The translations under genes were made by a program, and so were the position numbers. Below are positions 956 to 38,290 of a stretch of DNA of 64,000 nt, in pieces. A model generated the notes under the pieces. That model was given only the letters and a program-made list of their open reading frames with translations, searched no databases and was not told the origin of the DNA. The stretch is from Diplonema papillatum (Eukaryota > Euglenozoa > Diplonemea > Diplonemida > Diplonemidae), in assembly GCA_030068145.1 (NCBI GenBank), contig JAPJBO010000086.1, positions 315,001-379,000 of the forward strand. Direction: 5' to 3'. Every line of letters starts with the position of its first letter. The stretch's first letter is position 1.

Positions 956-3031
956 CTACACCTTGCTCGAGGACGCGCTCTCTCGGCCTGAGGCCACAGA
1001 AGCCAACTTCAGACCCAGCCTGCTCGGGAGATCCGCAATGTTCCGATCCCCGGGAACCCATTGGAACCAAACCCTGGCTCTCGCTTGCGCCAGGAACTCC
1101 CAGAGCGCATGAACAGGAGCCAGGAGCTGTTTCGTCCTGGACTTCCCTTGAACCAGGTTCCCAAGCACTGTCTGATTGTCTACCCAGACCGAGACAGTGT
1201 AGTCCTTCCGCCCCGTGAACCATAGTCGAAAGGCCACAGAGACCGCCGCGAACTCCAGAGCATGGATCGGCAGACCGGACCCCTGCGGAACCGCATAGGA
1301 GAAATACTCGACAGCCACCGGACGATCGTCTTCCAGTACTATACAGACGGCGCCTAAACCATACAAGCAAGCATCGGTGAGGAGGACGTACCTGATGGCA
1401 CAGCCACGCTGGACCGCCCTCACCGGCACCGATCTCTGGAACGTGCTCGGGTCCCCCTCCAACACTTTAACCCACCAGCTCAAGGCAACCTCAAGGGGCT
1501 CGCCGAGCTTGAAGCCGACAAAGGTCGACGAGGAATTGGCGCGCCTAAATATAGGCTGGAGAGGCACCCGGCCAACCTTGCCATACAGCGCCGTCGAAGC
1601 GAAGCCGAGCTTGCCTGCAAGCGCCGCTGCCTCACCCGGTGCAAGGGAGTCACGCGCCCGAACGTCTTTCAGCCGAGATACCAAGCCGTTTTTTCTTGCC
1701 CCGGAGAGAGAGATGCTCACTGCCTCCGCAGTTACCGCGAACACTAGGCCCAGGTGGCGAAATGCCCTGCCCTGTGTCGTTTTCTCCGGGTTGAACGTAG
1801 TACGCAGAATATCCTGAAGGAGCTCTAAGACGTCCGCCAGCACCCTGTCATCCTCCGACCTACAGGGCGCCGCGAAATCGTCAAAATACTGACATAGAGG
1901 CACCTTTAGACCAAGGCGAACAACGCTCGCCAGCACCTTGGCGAAGGCGTTGTAGTGCGTGACGGCCGCCGCCTCGCCGAAGGACAACCTTTCCATGCGG
2001 AAGAAACGCATCGCCCCATTCGGATCCTCAGCCACCACGCACCTGCACACTTCATCATTCCTGGCCCGGAGCTGGCGGTAAGCCTCTTTATGGTCCAGCC
2101 CTACTGAGTAGAATGAGGAGCCGTCGGGCGAACTGGCCGCCAGCAGCCTCGCCACCTCCGCGAACATGTCCGCTGTATCGAGGCGCACCTTCGTGGTAGT
2201 GAAGACGGCTTTGTTCACAAGGGCCATGCGACCATCGTCGCACGGACGCAGTTTCACCGGACAACCCTCCTGGTCGGCTTTCACCTGGCGAATAACAAAA
2301 CGCCGCAGAAACACAGCATTCGGGGGAGGCACCTGCACCTCTACCATGTAGCCCGCCTCCAGCTCCCTCTGGATGGAGTCCCAGACAGCACCCTTGTTCG
2401 CCGGGTTGTCTGACCGGATGGCCTTCGCCGAGCGCGCAAGTACATCGCTTTGGCGGCGCAGGAGCTGCTCGGTCGTGAGTTCGGGCACGCCTGGGCCAGC
2501 AGACGGATACAGAGACTCGTATCCTACACACCCGACCATCGGACACGCTGTCCTCAGGTTCTCCAACAGGTCGTCGGCACCGACCACGCCCAGGTCTGCG
2601 ACTAGCTCGGCGAGCAGTTCGACATGGCACGAGTCCCCCTCTCTCTTCCCGAGCTCGAGGGACCTTCTTCGCCAACGCACAAGGAAGTCTGATCGCATCT
2701 GCTGGGCCTCCTTCACTGGGGTCCTTGCACAATAAAGGATCGCAGAATACAGCGCGTCATCCATCCGCTCCACTTCCTTCGCCGAAGGCATCGCTTCCGA
2801 AGCACACTCTTCAGCAAACTTGTACCTTTCCACCACGTCGTGAACCTCTGCGGGTTTGAGGGGGGGAAGACAAGATCCCGACACTGCAGAGCAGCGCCCT
2901 TCCTTCGCTTGTTGCTGACCTTGTCGACGATGATGATGATGATGTTGATGATGTTGATGATGTTGATGATATTCATGATGCTGATGATGTTGATGGTCTT
3001 GATGGGGAGGGGTGCGGGAGGGACCTAGCAT
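956..3031 (-). CDS. Reverse transcriptase / RNase H polyprotein of a DIRS-like retroelement
   Basis: This frame encodes a retroelement polymerase of about 690 residues. The N-terminus is His/Gln-rich (from a GAT/GTT microsatellite), followed by an unassigned region and then an RT domain. The catalytic box is YFDDF near 1880-1893, preceded by a VGLDHKEAYRQL palm motif and followed by the RFRHLGLVF-type thumb entry. A C-terminal RNase H-like part shows LTDACLYGLGA, ALEFAAV, VWVDNQTVLGN and a final DRNIADLPSRLGL motif. That RT-RH order and the xADLPSR ending are typical of DIRS/Ngaro elements rather than Gypsy, and no protease or DDE integrase is visible. The ATG at 3031 is chosen; the frame is open a little further up to a GTG at 3073. 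It lies 78 bases downstream of the gag-like ORF in another frame. The frame is intact, so the copy may be young. Confidence 0.85.
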   Translation of the reverse strand: MLGPSRTPPHQDHQHHQHHEYHQHHQHHQHHHHHRRQGQQQAKEGRCSAVSGSCLPPLKPAEVHDVVERYKFAEECASEAMPSAKEVERMDDALYSAILYCARTPVKEAQQMRSDFLVRWRRRSLELGKREGDSCHVELLAELVADLGVVGADDLLENLRTACPMVGCVGYESLYPSAGPGVPELTTEQLLRRQSDVLARSAKAIRSDNPANKGAVWDSIQRELEAGYMVEVQVPPPNAVFLRRFVIRQVKADQEGCPVKLRPCDDGRMALVNKAVFTTTKVRLDTADMFAEVARLLAASSPDGSSFYSVGLDHKEAYRQLRARNDEVCRCVVAEDPNGAMRFFRMERLSFGEAAAVTHYNAFAKVLASVVRLGLKVPLCQYFDDFAAPCRSEDDRVLADVLELLQDILRTTFNPEKTTQGRAFRHLGLVFAVTAEAVSISLSGARKNGLVSRLKDVRARDSLAPGEAAALAGKLGFASTALYGKVGRVPLQPIFRRANSSSTFVGFKLGEPLEVALSWWVKVLEGDPSTFQRSVPVRAVQRGCAIRYVLLTDACLYGLGAVCIVLEDDRPVAVEYFSYAVPQGSGLPIHALEFAAVSVAFRLWFTGRKDYTVSVWVDNQTVLGNLVQGKSRTKQLLAPVHALWEFLAQARARVWFQWVPGDRNIADLPSRLGLKLASVASGRESASSSKV
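2926..2994. repeat. GAT/GTT microsatellite inside the RT ORF
   Basis: Runs of GATGATGTT and GATGTT units encode the His-rich tract at the N-terminus of the RT protein on the minus strand. The period of three keeps the frame. Confidence 0.85.
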
Positions 3032-3109
3032 GACCGGCTCGGGGTCCAGACTGCTTGGGGACGCCCTCGCCACGGCAGGGCGAGGCGATTCGGGCAGGGG
3101 ACTGACTAG

Positions 3110-11206: not shown

Positions 11207-11959
11207 GCCCCTGCAACAATAAGAAACGTAACGAGAATGAAAAGTACCACGCACAACCGTCGCCGATGCCGCGTCCTCGTCGACGTGTAGAGGTTGATCC
11301 TCGCGCGCGCGGAGCTTTTCCGCTGTGAAACCAGTGGTCCGAATCGCACCTATTGTTTTGTTTTCTTCTTCATTGCCCTTGCGGAAACGTCCCAGTTCTA
11401 GTTCAATGTGCTAAATCAGCCACCACCAACGCCCTTCGGATTCCTCCTTTTCTTCTTTGTGCTGAAGATGTGGTGGGGGCGGCTAATGCCGGAATACGCC
11501 CCGTCAGTTGGGCAATCAACCTGACACACGATGGTCCAATCATCAGCTTACACTGCCTGTTTGTGGCTGAAACGCCCAACCCTTAACTAGTCTGCCCGTC
11601 TAGGTTAGGATGCGCCGACATCAAAGGATCAAAAAGCAACGTTGGGCGCTTGGCTGCCACGAGCTAGTTATTCCTGTGGTAGTTTTTTGTGGCCGGCACC
11701 ATCCCTTGCAGCAAAACCAAAGGTCCCTTGGGCTATGCTTTGACACCAGCAACAAAGCAGAAACAACAAGGAAACAGCATTACACACACCATTTAGGGGG
11801 CATCCTTCTTCCTCTCGTATCACACTGTCAGCGAATTGTGTTTGTTGTGGTCCTTCACGGTCCGGAGCAGGCGGGCGTGTGCCAACTTCGCTTCCGAATT
11901 ACGTTGAGATACAGTAGAGGGGTGTGATATGGTCAGAGCCGTTGGTAGCAAGCGGTGAA
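11207..11959. other. Upstream region of the K+ channel gene
   Basis: I see no gene. The stretch presumably holds the promoter and 5' untranslated region of the channel gene. No TATA-like element could be assigned with confidence. Confidence 0.4.
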
Positions 11960-31033: not shown

Positions 31034-34000
31034 ATGGCTCGCACTGTGGACGATGTTCTGTATTACCGGCGGATGGAAGTGGTCGTGAACCGAGTCATGA
31101 TGAGACTCCTGGAGTGCGTCCTCAAAAAGAGACCGACGAATTCTAGAGAGGTCCTCATCGCTGTCAGGCAGGAGGCCAAAATGAATTTGCAGGGCACGGG
31201 GTGGCTGTGCGGAGCCTGCGGCAGCTCGAGCGACGGTGAAGACGTGTGCGGGTCGTGCGGCCTCGTGCGAAATGACGAAGTGCCCGTCTCCGAAGCAGGC
31301 GGCGACTCGCTTCTGCTGGCGGTGCGCCACCAACTCGGCCTCCGGGAGGAGGCACTGGCGATGAGAGAAAAGGTCGTCGAGGCGAAAGAGGCGGAACTAG
31401 GCATTCGTACGGTCAAGAACACAGCTTCCGAGCCGAAGCCGAAGGCCTTGAAGTCTTCTCGTTTCGGCGACGGTTCGGACGCGTTGCCTTCTTCCGACAA
31501 AGTGCCCGAGAAGCCGGTTCTGGTGCCGACAGGGTACCTGCCGCCGGCAGTCGCGTCCTCGGCGGACGGTCGCAATGCGTTGAAGTACCTTGCCATGTGG
31601 GCAGACCCGCGGGGTGTCGCCGTCTGGCCCCAAACCACGATCGACAACTTCGTCAGCGACAGCGACTTCCTCGTCGACACCTGGCGGAAGCGCGGCACAA
31701 CCGACAACGAGGCTGCGATGGTCGTCCGAACGCTGTTCGCCTACACGCACTCGCAACTGGCCCCGGAGGTGCTGTGGGCAGTGTGGGTGCCAACCGCGAC
31801 CGGTCGGGGAAGCACGCAGGCGGTGCCCAACAAATGGGAGCCGCTGATTAAAACCGCCGCGGCTCTCGAAGCGCAGTTCCAAGAAGCCCGAGACTCCGTC
31901 GTCCTGCGCCCGACGAGCGAAGTGCGCTCCATTTTTAAGCTCACTCCCCACACCGTGAGCCAAGCTGGAGCGATGCTCAGGCAACGGAAGTCGGTCGACG
32001 CTGTCGGTCTTCACATCTACACCAACCAGAGTAATCTGATGGTAGCTCGCTATGACAACAAACACCGTCGAAATCGACAGATCAGTCCCTTCAGCGACTC
32101 GGTCCTGTGGGTACCCGAAGGGGACGTCTTAAGGGGCAACCGGAATTTGATCCACGATGACCCCGCTCACAGCGAGCTGCCCTTCCCCGGTATTCTTGAG
32201 TACATTGCGGCAAATCTGCCGACGAGCGAGCTACGAGGTCGCACGAAGCAGCAAACCTGGGCCTGCAGGCCGTTCGCCGACGCCGAAGCGAAAAGTCTGG
32301 TGGACGACTGCTTGAACCAGTCCAACCAGCAGAAGCCGGACAAAAGGTTGCACGAACGTGCGGTCGAGCTGCTGAACCGAGCACATCTCCCGGAGCAGGA
32401 CGAGTTTCCCACCGTCGACGCCGACCTTTACCGCGAGATCTTCAAGAGGTCTGCCGCGTTCGACGACAGCAGGCTGATGAATCCCGAAGAAATTGCGCGG
32501 GCGTTGACGGTGCAGTGCCTGTTTTGGTACGGCAGGCACTATTTACTGGTCCTCAGCACGACGACCGTCGAGACGCGGGCGCCTCATTTTCTCGGGTGCG
32601 TCGACACCGGCGAAGTGATTCCCGTCTACCGCGTCGTCGCCAGCTACTGGCCGCAGCAAATCTTTTATCTGCTGAACATGTCTATGCGCGAAACTCAGCT
32701 CGGCAATCACGACGCAGAGCTGGTCATTAAAGCAGACCAGGAGAGCCAGGCAGTGGAAGGTGTTGCTGGGACGTACTATGCGCCCCAGCCGCTTTCTTGG
32801 GAAGACGGCACGTCGCACAGCCCACCTGCCTTCCGCAGGCGGGACAGGGGACTGTTCGGCACTGCTCATCGAACAATGGTCTCTTACACAGACGGCAACC
32901 AGTGGCGGGTGACGTACGGAACAGATGCGCCACAAAAGATAGTAAGGGAAGAGTCTGCGACTCTTTCATTGAAAGCTTGGATGCTGCCACAAGTGAGGCC
33001 GTTGATCTACTTCACGAACCGCGCACTCGAAGTCCTGCAGGAAGAAGGAGATACGCTGTACAAGACTTATCGAGGCATCGGTTGTGCGCTGTCGCGCGAT
33101 GTGTACTCTACTGGGAAGGTTTTTGTCTGGTCGCAGTACTCGTCAGCCAGTAAAGATCAAGGCGTTGCCGCTGCTTTCGCGAAACGAGACATGCCATCAG
33201 CAGTCTTCACTATTCATGGGTCGTCGTGCGTTCCAGTCATGCGATACTCAAGGTTCGGGCGGGAGGCCGAGCTGTTGTTCCCGTACAACTCGTCATTCAG
33301 GGTCGCCGAGTCACTCACAAAGGACCAGGCGCAGATTTTGGGAAAAGAGAATTTACAGCTGTTTACACTGGAAGAAGTGACAGAAGTTGACATGCACTGC
33401 ATCTTGGTGCGCCGGCTGCTGCCGTACGCTGCGACGACAGCGGCTGCTTCTGTTGTGTTCCAAGCGGAAGCCGCGCTGAAGGGCAACAAGTGTTTGGAGC
33501 TCTCCCTTTCGCACAACGCAGTCGGCCATGTTCCTTCGCACTGGCAGGTTTTCTTCCACGAGCCTTCACATGGTTGTCCGATTGACGGGTCCGCGTCGTG
33601 GGAAAAGCCGTCTTGCGAATCTCAACTGTTAGACACGCTAGAGCAGGCTTCCAACGGCCTGCCTCCGGTCAAAGAGAACGAAACACCCAACTACTTACTC
33701 GTCGCGTCTGAGTTCCCAGAAGGAAAGTCCGGTACCTTTGGTCTGAAGTCCTTGAAAGTGGCTAGCAACTGCGCCTTCGTCACGCAGGGGACTCACAAAA
33801 GGACGGGTACTGACACCTTAAGGTTTGAAATCGGCAGCGATCTATCGCAAGTCGTCAAATGGGAGGACAAATGGGTTCTTTATAACGAAGACGACGACGA
33901 CGATACTGAAGAAGTCAACAACGGCGGAAGTAGTCAGCCGGTGCGCAGGCGTGCGTCACCATATCTGCTGGGTGAGTGGCCAGAAGAAGGAGGCGAAATG

Positions 34001-37000
34001 GGGCCCGTCGTCAGGCCAGCGCAGTATTTCGATGTGCCAAATATTCTAGCACCACGGTGCCCTAACTATCACACATTGAGCTCGGTCGAACTCGACCGGG
34101 AGACTCATTGGTGTTCGGTGTGCGACAATGAGATGGCTGCAAAGGTTTACTACGCTTGCTCGAAATGCGACCACAAGGCACACCTGCAATGCCTCAACAG
34201 CGTCTCATGGGGCGGTATAAAGTTTTCATTGGAAGGCAATACACTCGTGAAGTATTTAAACAACGAGGTGGACGTCCCGCAGATCACCTCTTTGATGTCT
34301 TCGGTGTCCTCGCATATGACCAGTGTGTTCGTGGACCAAAACGGCTTCGAGACACCGTGCCGGCAAATGTGGCATTCAAGCGTGCAGCGTCTTGCAAGAT
34401 TGGCGGCCTTGGCGTTGATTCCTCACGACATCCCGCTGCAAGGCGAGGCCTACCAACCTGCAGGCAAACTGCTGCGTGCAGCGAATCGGCTCGCGCAGAG
34501 GAACGTGGACAGACTTCGAATATTGGGGAAGAGTGGCGAAAATACCAGCATTCGTCTGCAAATGGCGGGCCACCCGAAACTGTCAGGGAGTTTCTGGTGC
34601 GTCACGGCAGAGCTTCGCAGGACGGCCGCTCGACCAGGTTTGGCTGTCGGAGACGAGGGTGCAATCATGGCGGCGCGGATCGTGAGTCTCAACGTGCCGC
34701 TGAAGGTGGTGGGTTTGCGCAACAACAGCGTCGGGCTTGACGGCGCAAAAAGGCTTCTCGAGAGCGTGAAGCAGAACACGAGCGTCGTGGAAGCCACTCT
34801 GGGTGACGAAGTTGTAGTTGACCCAGAGCTCGAAATTTACAGGCAGGCGCTCTCCCTCAGGTGCATGTACCACAGCTGCAAGAGCAGAGGCGTCCCTTTG
34901 CTCGATGGACACCTGTCTGGTACCGGCGAGCAGTGGCCGCGCGTCTTCTCGCTGGCGTTGGGTGACATCCCGAATCTAGAGCTGCCCATAGCTGGTATCC
35001 TCGACCAACACCCCGTTGGCTGGCAGACAATGGCGCAGAACTTTAAGTTCCCCCCGCGGGCCAGTCCTTTGACACTGCACTACGCCTGCAAAGCCGGGCT
35101 AGTGCGCGCCGTCGTGCCGCTGCTGGACGACTGCAAAATTGACCCCAACGCATTAGACGACGAGAACGTGCCACCTCTGATGAAAGCCGTTCGACAACAC
35201 GCATTTGAGTGCGAAGAAGGCGAGGCCGCTATCAAGCGCCTCGTCACGAACGAAACTGTCAAGAGAAACGAGGCTCTGCTGCTGGCAGTCCGTGCATGCG
35301 GGCCAAAGGTGACTGGCGTGCTGCTGGACAAAGGAATGGCTTTGGAAGCGACGCAGAAAGCGGAGCTTCTCGTGAGAGCGGTGAAGAATCCCGCATACAA
35401 CAGCGACCGGACGGCCTTCGGTCGGCTTTTGAAAGAAGTCGGGCCAAACGACCTGACGGGCCATGCACTGCTGTGCGAGGCAGCCAAGGTAGGATCGTTC
35501 TACGCGATCGAAGATCTGGCCACTGCTGGCGCTCCAGTAGACGAGACCGACGAGTGGCAGAGGACAGCCCTTCACTTGATTGCGTCATCTTCCTCGAAGC
35601 TTTCCCTGGGCCCCGAGCAATTTAAGGTCGTCAAAATGCTGGCTACACCGAGCGTTCTCCAACACGTGGACCAAAACGATGAAACTGTGTTGATGGCAGC
35701 CGTCCGTTTGACCCCGCCGCTGGCGTTCTTCATACTCAATGAGTGCGTGACGCCTCGGGCGCACGACGTCAGGATCCTCCACATTGCGAGCGCTAACAAA
35801 TATTTTGACACCGCTGACTCTGTTGAGTCGCTTGCTCTCTTGTTCCCGAAGGAAGTCCCGCTTGAAAAAACCGAGTGCTTGCACCACGCGTGCGCCGCAG
35901 GGTTTCTGCACGTGGCGCGTTTCTTGATAGAGCAGAATGCCAGCGTCGTGCTCCAGAATGGAAGCGGCAACACGCCACTTCTTTGCGCCTGCGGGTCTTC
36001 TTCTTTCGACTGGGCCAAGTCTGACAACGGGCAACAGTTGATTGATGACCTGGCAAGAGACGTGTTGGAAGTTGTCAACTCCAGTGACGAATCTGCGTTG
36101 TACCGCGCCATGGCTAACGGCCTCATAGAGACTGCCGCTTACCTTTTGTCGCTGGGTGCAGAGATTCGAGGTGCCGACGGAGTGCCTGCTTCGTTTGCTC
36201 TGGCGAAGACGAACACCTTTGAGAGCCAGCCTCGCGGGCGTGAGATCATCAAACAAGTTGTGCAGCATGAGAGCGAGATGGGCACAGGCTACATGCATGG
36301 TACCAAGCTCAACGCACTCTACAATGCGTGCAAACAACGCCGCGTTGAGTACACGAGGCTGCTGCTAGAACTGGGTGTCAGTGCCGAAATGGGCGAAGGT
36401 TTTGAAACGGCACTTGGTGTGGCGTGCAGCAATGCTGTCTTCGGAGAGCACCTTGACGTTTTCGAGCAACTCATCGAACCGCAGTTGCTACTCAAGCTCA
36501 GCGATCCCGCCGCCGAAGACAGCCACCCGCTCCTCATTGCAGTGAGGAAGACAAACTTTGCAGTCATTCCCCCGCTGCTGAAGCGCCTCCCGACACAGAA
36601 CAAGGACAACGTCATTCTGAAGGCAGTGGGAAAGCTGCTATTGCTCGAGGGCTTCGACTGCGTCGAAGGAGCGGAGCTTCTGCAGGCGATGATGAAGCCG
36701 AAGAACGTAAATAAGCTTCTTGGCGGCATGACACCACTGTTCAGAGCTGTGGAAGCCGGATACCTTCACTTGACACGAGCTCTGCTCGACCTAGGAGCAG
36801 ATCCTTCAATTACGAATGCCAACGGAAGGAGCCACTTAGTCGAAGCATGCACGGTCGAGGCGTTTTCGTGTTCCGACGGGAGAGCTCTAATTCACAGGCT
36901 CGTCACACCGGCGCTTCTGAACGGGAACCCGAACCCTCTGTTTCATGCTACTTGCTATGGATGCATAGAAATTATGGAGGAATTGCTATCCATCGAAGGC

Positions 37001-38290
37001 ATCGACGTTTCGCTTGCCGTCGAAGACCATGACGAACAGAGTGTTGACAGGAATATCCTCCATGAAGCAAGCGATACCTCAGATTTGAACTCTCCTGAGG
37101 GCTGCTCCGTCCTTCGCCGAGTACTAGCTCAAGCTCCGCCAAGTTTCATCACAGCACGAACTACCGACAAGAAGAAGACACCTCTACATTTGGCTGCTGA
37201 GAATGCCCATTGGCTAATTCTAGAGCTGCTGCTACAAGCCAACTTTGATGCCGTCAAAGTGACTGACGGTCGCAACCGAACTGCATTGCACTACATTGCA
37301 AAGAACTGCAGCGCCATTAGTGCTGGACAAGAGATGAAAACCTTCCGCAACCTTGCTCGTAGACCTATTCTCAATATGCAAGATACCGACGGCAACACTG
37401 CGCTACACATTGCGGCGAAGTACAACGCATGTCAAGCAATTCTTTTGGTGTGTACTCTTCGACTTCTTGCAAGAGTTCTACACCAGGTTCCAGCCAAACC
37501 TGGTTCATACGATGGCGTTCAGATCGTAGCAATGAAATAGCAATTGCCTTCGGCTTCGTGTAGGAGTCAATTGGCAGCCAATGAGCGCCACATGTTTTAA
37601 ATTCAATCCCACAGCTCGAATGCGGGGCTTCGATAAATGTGGCCAACAGCATGAAGTCCACGGCGATGCACCTGAGCTGTTTTGCACGCACGTTTACATC
37701 GGAGATGTGCACTTCAATGCTCGACGCGGGTGCGAATGCAAATGCGATAAACGCGTGGGGACACGTTGCCCTCGATTATTTGCTTCACAAAAATCCCGAC
37801 TGCGACTTCGAGGTATGGTTAGTCTTCTGTTTCCTACAACCACCTAGCCGCGAATTGCAGCGAGTACATAATGCTCTAAACTACACCATGATTGCGCATG
37901 TAGCCTTCCATTAACATGACAACAACAACACCGATGCAGACGGCTCAATTGCTCCACTCCGCAACACGCGAGCCTATTTCAAAAAGCACCGCCGTGCGAG
38001 GGGCCAGGCTACGTTCCCTTTTGGGATTGCCAGACGAGCAGCTTGGCGAAGATGCTCCCGCGCACTACCCGCTTAGTGAAGCATCAACGGACGAAGAGGG
38101 GCCAGGCTACGTTCCCTTTTGGGATTGCCCGACGAGCAGCTTGGCGAAGATGCTCCCCCCGCGCACTACCCGCTTAGTGAAGCGGGTAGTGCAGAAGCAT
38201 CGACGGACGAAAGCTCAGACGAATGCTCGGTCGACAGCAAAAGCGACGGCGTCGGAGATCGTGAGCTTGATAAGGACTCAGAATGGATGA
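31034..38290 (+). CDS. Giant zinc finger / ADP-ribosyltransferase-like / ankyrin-repeat protein, three exons
   Basis: Exon 1 is 31,034-37,447 (donor TTG|GTGTGT), exon 2 is 37,705-37,812 (donor GAG|GTATGG) and exon 3 is 37,940-38,290; all junctions are phase 0, giving about 2290 residues. A RanBP2-type finger (WLCGACG...DVCGSCGLV) lies at residues 56-78. A mono-ADP-ribosyltransferase-like domain at about 660-760 has YRG, WSQYSSAS and REAELLF in the R-S-ExE order of arginine-specific ARTs. A Cys/His zinc module follows (CPNYHTL...HWCSVCD...CSKCDHKAHLQC, about 1010-1055). An LRR-like stretch (VVGLRNNSVGLDGAKRLLESV) precedes a long ankyrin array from about residue 1345. Modification of a protein target recognised by the ankyrin array is inferred. 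The region from residue 100 to 650 is unassigned. The stop TGA comes from the first bases of an adjacent transposon. Confidence 0.8.
37998..38193 (+). repeat. 98-bp tandem duplication in the last exon of the ankyrin/ART gene
   Basis: A unit starting GAGGGGCCAGGCTACGTTCC at 37,998 repeats from 38,096 with a 3-base insertion in the second copy. 98 is not a multiple of three, so the duplicated segment shifts the reading frame: the second copy gives the peptide GLPDEQLGEDAP only in another frame. Confidence 0.9.

What the first reader, a model, noticed from the sequence alone, without database searches (positions are those of the whole stretch)
31034..38290. ADP-ribosyltransferase-like domain fused to zinc fingers and a long ankyrin array
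The R-S-ExE signature (YRG, WSQYSSAS, REAELLF) in the correct order and spacing sits between a RanBP2-type finger and a second Cys/His module, followed by LRR-like and many ankyrin repeats in one continuous frame. ARTs with ExE motifs are known in animals, bacteria and scattered protists, but I know of no described protein with this full domain order. The ankyrin array could select substrates for ADP-ribosylation, or the protein could act as an intracellular sensor or effector. About 550 residues before the ART domain are unassigned and may hold a new domain.
Basis: partly seen in the sequence, partly recalled or inferred. Interest (0 to 1): 0.78.

Follow-up and report, generated by a model that had tools for sequence, protein, structure and literature searches.

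The report
Ankyrin-guided ADP-ribosyltransferase in a diplonemid
A marine protist of the diplonemid group carries a large protein that joins a toxin-type ADP-ribosylating enzyme to a long ankyrin array, probably an internal enzyme steered by its ankyrin part rather than a secreted toxin.

Summary
The core observation holds. One + strand frame (ATG 31034, stop 37538-37540, 2,168 codons) encodes an R-S-E ADP-ribosyltransferase (ART): PF01129 E 8.5e-9, above its cut-off. A profile from eight distant family rows scores the protein 146.7 bits; the best of 500 shuffles scores 4.0. R680, E744 and E746 are invariant in 12 of 12 family rows, S704 in 10 of 12. Residues ~140-530 are a conserved module without Pfam or PDB identity. 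The RanBP2 and C1 fingers are near-matches only. The last ankyrin exon lies past a predicted intron at 37448. The genome is a diplonemid, most likely Diplonema papillatum. It has 22 PF01129 places, and five clear ART-ankyrin copies. The enzyme half is under strong purifying selection; the ankyrin half changes faster. Best reading: an intracellular mono-ART laid out like tankyrase, with ankyrins choosing the target, but built on an ARTC-type catalytic domain. A new variant of a known kind. Activity, targets and fold are untested.

The parts
31034..37447 (+). main exon of the ART-ankyrin gene (residues 1-2138); the ORF itself stays open to the stop at 37538-37540
   Evidence: the paralogue L013 aligns from its own Met to the same splice point
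31061..31168 (+). possible RIIa/DPY-30-like dimerisation helix pair (residues 10-45), tentative
   Evidence: profile of three family rows: 4 PDB hits, all weak (E 0.35-1.5), two of them named DPY30 or dpy-30; no Pfam support
31199..31261 (+). C4 zinc finger, RanBP2-like
   Evidence: Cys pattern kept in 3 paralogue rows, which fit the recalled RanBP2 consensus better than the window copy; no Pfam RanBP2 hit
31451..32623 (+). conserved N-module of unknown fold (residues 140-530)
   Evidence: alignment A2 of 8 family rows, three of them close copies of one another, with 20 invariant columns in this stretch; no Pfam hit for the window row at E<=5, best 0.2 in single other rows; best PDB hit E 1.6
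32624..33388 (+). R-S-E ADP-ribosyltransferase domain (residues ~531-785): helix 1 with N548 and R552, then R680, S704, E744-x-E746
   Evidence: PF01129 E 8.5e-9; conserved residues; PDB profile hits; shuffle control
32699..32962 (+). ~85-residue insert within the ART domain (residues ~556-643)
   Evidence: missing from the ARTs of L009, L010, L016, L023 and mostly from L026; present in window, L013, L011 and L020
34046..34198 (+). C1/DC1-like Cys/His module
   Evidence: C1_2 24.8 bits (cut-off 26) on the sub-fragment; Cys positions kept in paralogues, one His not
34706..34783 (+). single LRR-like unit (residues ~1225-1250)
   Evidence: read by eye; residues 1191-1260 are 67% identical to L013; no Pfam hit
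35054..37447 (+). ankyrin array
   Evidence: Ank_2 E 6.9e-45, 9 stretches; 39-45% identity to L013
37448..37704 (+). predicted intron (GT..AG); L013 has a GT at the same place in its frame
   Evidence: read by eye; no RNA evidence
37705..37812 (+). predicted further ankyrin exon (36 codons); the 3' end of the gene beyond it is not resolved

Best explanation
The gene encodes an intracellular, soluble mono-ADP-ribosyltransferase of the R-S-E (cholera-toxin-type, ARTC) class. The ART domain (residues ~531-785) binds NAD+ through R680 and S704 and transfers ADP-ribose with the ExE glutamates; ExE suggests arginine, by analogy, as the acceptor. The ankyrin array, helped by the C1-like, LRR-like and zinc-finger modules, binds a partner. 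That either brings the substrate to the enzyme (tankyrase logic) or gates the enzyme, and the N-terminal helices may dimerise it. Shown by sequence: the catalytic signature, the domain order, conservation of the whole frame in a paralogue, and faster change in the ankyrin half. Inferred: activity, arginine specificity, location inside the cell, and target choice by the ankyrins.
For: PF01129 above its cut-off. R680, E744 and E746 invariant in 12 of 12 rows of A1 and S704 in 10 of 12; all four invariant in 7 of 7 rows of A3 and 9 of 9 of A4, which also keeps N548 and R552 of the first helix. PDB profile hits: 26 of 26 are ARTs by name or recall; 45 of 46, the other an enoyl-CoA hydratase at E 0.34. 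L013 keeps the same layout in one 2,177-codon frame at 48% identity; codon-position identities are 0.59/0.71/0.36 over 2,091 codons and 0.30 at fourfold sites. Identity to L013 is highest in the ART (83% first helix, 68% catalytic part) and lowest in the ankyrins (39-45%). dN/dS with codon-bootstrap ranges: N-terminus to ART 0.12 (0.086-0.162) for L013/L015a; post-ART 0.19 (0.12-0.27) and ankyrins 0.33 (0.27-0.42) for L013/C848. No hydrophobic N-terminus: best 19-residue mean 0.70 near the N-terminus, 1.57 in the whole exon. Tankyrase substrates bind its ankyrin clusters (PMC10789625, passages).
Against: No fold model: the single-sequence AlphaFold2 job failed (mean pLDDT 29). No RNA evidence was seen. 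The two L019 rows of the wider family have Pro where S704 stands, so some members may be inactive. The faster ankyrin change is still purifying (0.33), so it may only be weaker constraint; the 0.78 for L013/L017 comes from a broken copy, whose ART gives 0.73 on 7 changes. The dN/dS values come from different pairs. Genome searches for ADP-ribosyl hydrolases (PF03747) and macrodomains (PF01661) did not complete, so a reversal enzyme is unknown here.
Confidence: 0.62

Rival explanations
1. Immune-type sensor: the ankyrin array recognises invader or stress molecules and unleashes the ART as a toxic effector that ADP-ribosylates the cell's own or the invader's proteins, in the manner of NLR proteins.
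For: The same genome has an ART fused to a NACHT, pentapeptide repeats and a WD40-like stretch in one 1,359-codon frame (L026; NACHT 24.3 bits, below the cut-off of 26.7, and 28.9, above it; the WD40-like hit is below its cut-off). ARTs are named among effector domains of apoptotic and immune systems in PMC8195603 (passages). Copies multiply and break: C724 holds three, one intact and one in three ORFs, one matched only in two short ORFs. Conversion-like identity: L013 and C848 show dS 0 from about residue 735 to 900 of the L013 frame, 0.085 in 900-1000 and 0.18-0.48 in the bins beyond.
Against: The window protein itself has no NACHT. Ankyrin dN/dS is well below 1 between L013 and C848. The NACHT-linked ART falls outside the nine-row clade of the window ART and is a long branch of unsure place. 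No PADLOC hit for residues 1-839, the only part scanned. Only three NACHT places were found in the genome.
Confidence: 0.22
2. Pseudo-enzyme scaffold: the ART fold is kept for binding only, and the protein is an adaptor.
For: No activity data; the two L019 rows lack the S704 serine; zinc-finger residues drift between copies.
Against: In the window and its three close copies all four catalytic residues are kept, and R and both E are kept in 12 of 12 rows although the other rows are only 27-51% identical to the window; the ART is the most conserved part.
Confidence: 0.1
3. Secreted or injected toxin aimed at prey or competitors, since the nearest solved relatives are mostly bacterial toxins and effectors.
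For: PDB neighbours are Vis, ExoT/ExoS, SpvB, HopU1 and others beside rat ART2.
Against: No signal-like N-terminus by hydropathy; a chain of over 2,100 residues with a long ankyrin array and zinc modules fits an intracellular protein (inference); PF01129 also holds animal ARTs (rat ART2).
Confidence: 0.05

Closest known systems
Tankyrase (PARP5; ankyrin clusters-SAM-PARP)
   Same: ankyrin clusters in one chain with an ADP-ribosyltransferase; ankyrins recruit substrates (PMC10789625, passages)
   Different: the catalytic domain here is R-S-E ART (PF01129), not H-Y-E PARP; the order is reversed (enzyme first, ankyrins last); no SAM hit; extra zinc modules and N-module
OspC/CopC ADP-riboxanases of bacteria
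   Same: N-terminal ART-like catalytic domain plus C-terminal ankyrin domain (PMC9239266, passages)
   Different: they have a His-Phe-Glu triad and are injected bacterial effectors; here the triad is R-S-E, in a nuclear gene of a protist, with an N-module, fingers and C1-like part
ARTC ecto-enzymes of vertebrates (ARTC1-5)
   Same: R-S-E triad; rat ART2 is among the profile hits
   Different: the human ones are GPI-anchored or secreted and face the ER lumen or outside (PMC10789625, passages); this one has no leader by hydropathy and sits in a large multidomain protein
Vis, ExoS/ExoT, SpvB, HopU1 bacterial R-S-E ARTs
   Same: best profile matches to the ART domain
   Different: secreted or injected toxins without ankyrins (recalled); the SpvB alignment shown runs from helix 1 to the catalytic part without an ~85-residue insert

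Membership tests
R-S-E ADP-ribosyltransferase (PF01129, ARTC class) | score above the curated Pfam cut-off | tested here: met
   35.5 vs 22.3 bits
R-S-E ADP-ribosyltransferase (PF01129, ARTC class) | R, S (first of the STS-like motif) and ExE residues in order | tested here: met
   R680, S704, E744, E746 in the window; R and both E in 12 of 12 rows, S704 in 10 of 12; all in 9 of 9 rows of A4
R-S-E ADP-ribosyltransferase (PF01129, ARTC class) | ART fold (split beta sheet) | tested here: inconclusive
   sequence profile matches ARTs of known structure; the single-sequence fold failed
R-S-E ADP-ribosyltransferase (PF01129, ARTC class) | NAD+-dependent transfer to arginine | not testable with these tools
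   needs an assay
Vertebrate-type ARTC ecto-enzyme | signal peptide and GPI anchor or secretion | tested here: not met
   judged by hydropathy only: best 19-residue mean near the N-terminus 0.70; the unresolved 3' end was not tested for an anchor
Tankyrase | PARP (H-Y-E) catalytic domain | tested here: not met
   no PF00644 hit at E<=1; the ART is PF01129
Tankyrase | ankyrin clusters | tested here: met
   Ank_2 E 6.9e-45; tankyrase-specific peptide-binding residues were not examined
Tankyrase | SAM domain | tested here: not met
   no SAM hit at E<=1
OspC/CopC ADP-riboxanase | His-Phe-Glu triad | tested here: not met
   the triad is R-S-E
NLR/STAND sensor | NACHT or other STAND NTPase | tested here: not met
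   no NACHT or STAND hit at E<=1 in the window protein; L026 has one
RIIa/DPY-30 dimerisation domain | profile match to RIIa or Dpy-30 | tested here: inconclusive
   weak PDB hits only; no Pfam hit

The most novel reading that the evidence does not exclude
Diplonemids run an intracellular surveillance system in which R-S-E ADP-ribosyltransferases serve as the effector domain on several recognition scaffolds: ankyrin arrays (this gene and its copies) and an NLR-like NACHT-pentapeptide-WD40 chain (L026). The ART core is homogenised by gene conversion while the recognition part diverges.
Probability: 0.18. Interest if true: 0.8.

Novelty: new variant of a known kind. Interest (0 to 1): 0.52.

Why it matters
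By the review read here in passages (PMC10789625), human ARTC (R-S-E) enzymes face the ER lumen or the outside. A soluble R-S-E enzyme on an ankyrin scaffold would be a separately built answer to the problem tankyrase solves inside the cell. [quoted passage not shown] The family gives a defined test: does the ankyrin array choose the substrate or switch the enzyme? The ART-NACHT gene elsewhere in the same genome makes an immune-like system in a euglenozoan testable.

Tried and rejected
Structure prediction: one single-sequence AlphaFold2 job on residues 523-797 gave mean pLDDT 29 and was discarded; no fold search was run on it.

Relatives elsewhere: viral contigs with A1 and A2, no relatives; prokaryote genomes with the single window ART domain (a query for close relatives only), none. 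Other eukaryotes could not be searched, so 'diplonemid-specific' is not claimed.

N-terminal module: no Pfam or PDB identity. Defence library: no hit for window residues 1-839, L026 or L010. Rejected: chance motif; two merged genes (L013 has the same layout in one frame).

Papers: seven answered searches (the last found 0). In titles and abstract starts of the listings I saw no paper on a diplonemid ART, an R-S-E ART with ankyrins in a protist, or an ART-NACHT protein. One search listed 15 of 645 papers; 14 of the 15, all the diplonemid and euglenozoan ones among them, showed zero uses of 'ADP-ribosyltransferase'. In 'ADP-ribos' and 'ankyrin' each occurred 0 times in the main text of the D. 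papillatum genome paper. Subscription papers and supplements were not seen.
Full report
Where it is. The window lies in a 271,365,524-base eukaryotic assembly of 2,910 contigs. Pieces of 18S rRNA are scattered widely: 252 exact matches of one 21-base word, two loci of them checked by Rfam. A 28S piece lies in the window. The D. papillatum genome paper (PMC10161547, passages) reports 280,293,864 bases in 6,181 contigs of 200 bases or more, a largest contig above 1 Mb, and about 3,600 scattered 28S pieces; contig C1 here has 1,009,103 bases, the longest I saw. The contig counts differ (2,910 against 6,181). The host is a diplonemid and most likely D. papillatum; the species is inferred.

Gene model. 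The frame from ATG 31034 is open to the stop at 37538-37540. At 37448 a GT follows residue 2138, and an ankyrin-like exon of 36 codons lies at 37705-37812 between AG and GT. L013 has a GT at the same place in its frame and an ankyrin-like stretch downstream (read by eye).

The ART domain. Pfam PF01129 matches residues 653-768 with E 8.5e-9; PF03496 matches below its cut-off. The genome has 22 PF01129 places, all over the cut-off, against 0 of 14 control genomes; C1811 repeats C724 over the ORF and C2171 looks the same as C2. Alignment A1 took 12 of the 22; left out were C1811, C26, C312, C826, C759, C156, C2, C2171, C281 and C73. In A1 R680, E744 and E746 are invariant. S704, the first serine of the STS-like motif, is kept in 10 of 12, the two L019 rows having Pro. 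It is invariant in 7 of 7 rows of A3 and 9 of 9 of A4. Profile A1 finds 26 PDB sequences at E<=1, led by Vis, ExoT and rat ART2, all ARTs by name or recall. Profile A4 (9 of the 22) finds 46, of which 45 are ARTs by name or recall; the other is an enoyl-CoA hydratase at E 0.34. A profile from the eight A1 rows other than the window and its three closest copies scores the protein 146.7 bits; the best of 500 shuffles scores 4.0 and the best of 241 other window ORFs 2.3.

A split ART. In A4 the helix with N548 and R552 aligns with the like helix of ARTs that lack a long insert (L009, L010, L016, L023, and L026 with a short one). In window, L013, L011 and L020 a longer stretch, ~85 residues in the window, lies between that helix and the next. 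So the ART domain spans ~531-785, and the Pfam match begins late probably because the insert breaks it. The insert has no assigned identity.

The N-terminal part. Residues 140-530 align in 8 family rows, three of them close copies, with 20 invariant columns. Pfam gives nothing at E<=5 for the window row and at best 0.2 in single other rows; PDB gives one hit at E 1.6. A protein search with this module plus the ART found 15 matches at 13 gene places, the window included: C86, C1343, C724 (three), C1811, C848, C620, C269, C252, C584, C103 and C553 (weak, E 3.4e-4). Ten of the 13 hold a PF01129 place; the others are C848 (matched only in the ART part, at a contig end), the middle C724 copy and C553. 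In that search C620 and C584 matched mainly in the ART part. Whether the module occurs without an ART is open. The first 50 residues resemble RIIa/DPY-30 helices only weakly.

Other modules. The first finger is C4; three paralogue rows fit the recalled RanBP2 consensus, the window copy less well. The C1-like module scores just under Pfam's cut-offs. The LRR label is by eye.

Family and evolution. Close copies besides the window: L013 (C724, 2,177 open codons), C1811 (identical over the ORF), L017 (C724, three ORFs), L015 (C1343, two ORFs), C848 (1,444 open codons from the contig end), and a C724 copy matched only in two short ORFs. Identity window/L013: first ART helix 83%, catalytic part 68%, LRR stretch 67%, N-terminal helices 63%, N-module 47-57%, insert 48%, finger and C1 42%, ankyrins 39-45%. 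Codon-position identities are 0.59/0.71/0.36 over 2,091 codons. dN/dS: L013/L015a N-terminus to ART 0.12 (0.086-0.162), 805 codons; L013/C848 post-ART 0.19 (0.12-0.27), 541 codons; ankyrins 0.33 (0.27-0.42), 798 codons. These are different pairs, so the contrast is suggestive; within L013/L015 the trend is 0.11-0.12 up to and in the ART, 0.24 after it, and 0.42 in 202 ankyrin codons. L013/L017 gives 0.78 in the ankyrins, but L017 is broken, and its ART gives 0.73 on 7 changes. L013 and C848 are identical over 102 codons of the ART and on to about residue 900 (dS 0); dS is 0.085 in 900-1000 and 0.18-0.48 in the bins beyond. That looks like gene conversion, though an assembly artefact is possible. 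A tree of 16 of the 22 ARTs (left out: C1811, C759, the two L019 frames, C2, C2171) groups the window with its three copies at 99/99 and nine ARTs at 97/96; the NACHT-linked ART is a long branch of unsure place.

Setting. The genome also has 26 PARP (PF00644) matches, several of them pieces on one contig, and three NACHT places (the NACHT model also rings in 11 of 14 control genomes, over the cut-off in 3). Hydrolase searches did not complete.

Reading. The sequence shows a conserved R-S-E ART in one chain with ankyrins, with the enzyme as the most conserved part. From knowledge of ARTs the triad predicts NAD+ use, and ExE suggests arginine as acceptor (recalled). From tankyrase (PMC10789625, passages) the ankyrins plausibly recruit substrates. 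It resembles tankyrase in layout but is not one: the PARP domain and SAM were tested and not met. It shares a catalytic-plus-ankyrin layout with OspC/CopC (PMC9239266, passages), but their triad is His-Phe-Glu. The immune reading is kept as a rival because of L026 and the turnover of copies.

Score. The ART call is secure (about 0.95). The mechanism as stated is 0.62. The architecture is new to the searches made here, in a known class of enzymes.

Noticed in passing
L026:3252-7328 (G000:C390): One 1,359-codon frame with an R-S-E ART, a NACHT (GDSGCGKT and LDALDE; 24.3 bits, 28.9, cut-off 26.7), pentapeptide repeats and a WD40-like stretch below cut-off: NLR-like layout with an ART at the front.
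   Followed up: partly
L010:2491-4377 (G000:C312): Uracil-DNA-glycosylase-like region (best PDB E 3.9e-9; no Pfam hit for it at E<=0.01) upstream of an R-S-E ART (PF01129 E 5.9e-14) in one frame.
   Followed up: partly
L023:2-7270 (G000:C156): Dynein-related AAA_5 ATPase domains (E 5.5e-32) in one frame with an ART (27.2 bits, cut-off 22.3).
   Followed up: no
window 11518-11671 (-): A 28S rRNA fragment upstream of an ion-channel ORF, fitting the scattered rRNA pieces described for D. papillatum.
   Followed up: partly
G000, 624 places: The spliced-leader 3' end occurs 624 times, more than the 110 SL RNA genes given in the paper, and the listed places are spread over many contigs; leader-bearing retrocopies are one possible cause.
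   Followed up: no
G000:C724:46000-98000 (L017, L033, L013): Three ART-ankyrin family copies within about 50 kb: one intact, one in three ORFs, one matched only in two short ORFs.
   Followed up: partly
window 956-3073 (-): Reverse-transcriptase-like ORF, below the Pfam cut-off.
   Followed up: no
L019:3994-5565 (G000:C269): Two near-identical neighbouring ART frames that keep the Arg and ExE but have YRV for YRG and Pro at the S704 position; possibly inactive.
   Followed up: no
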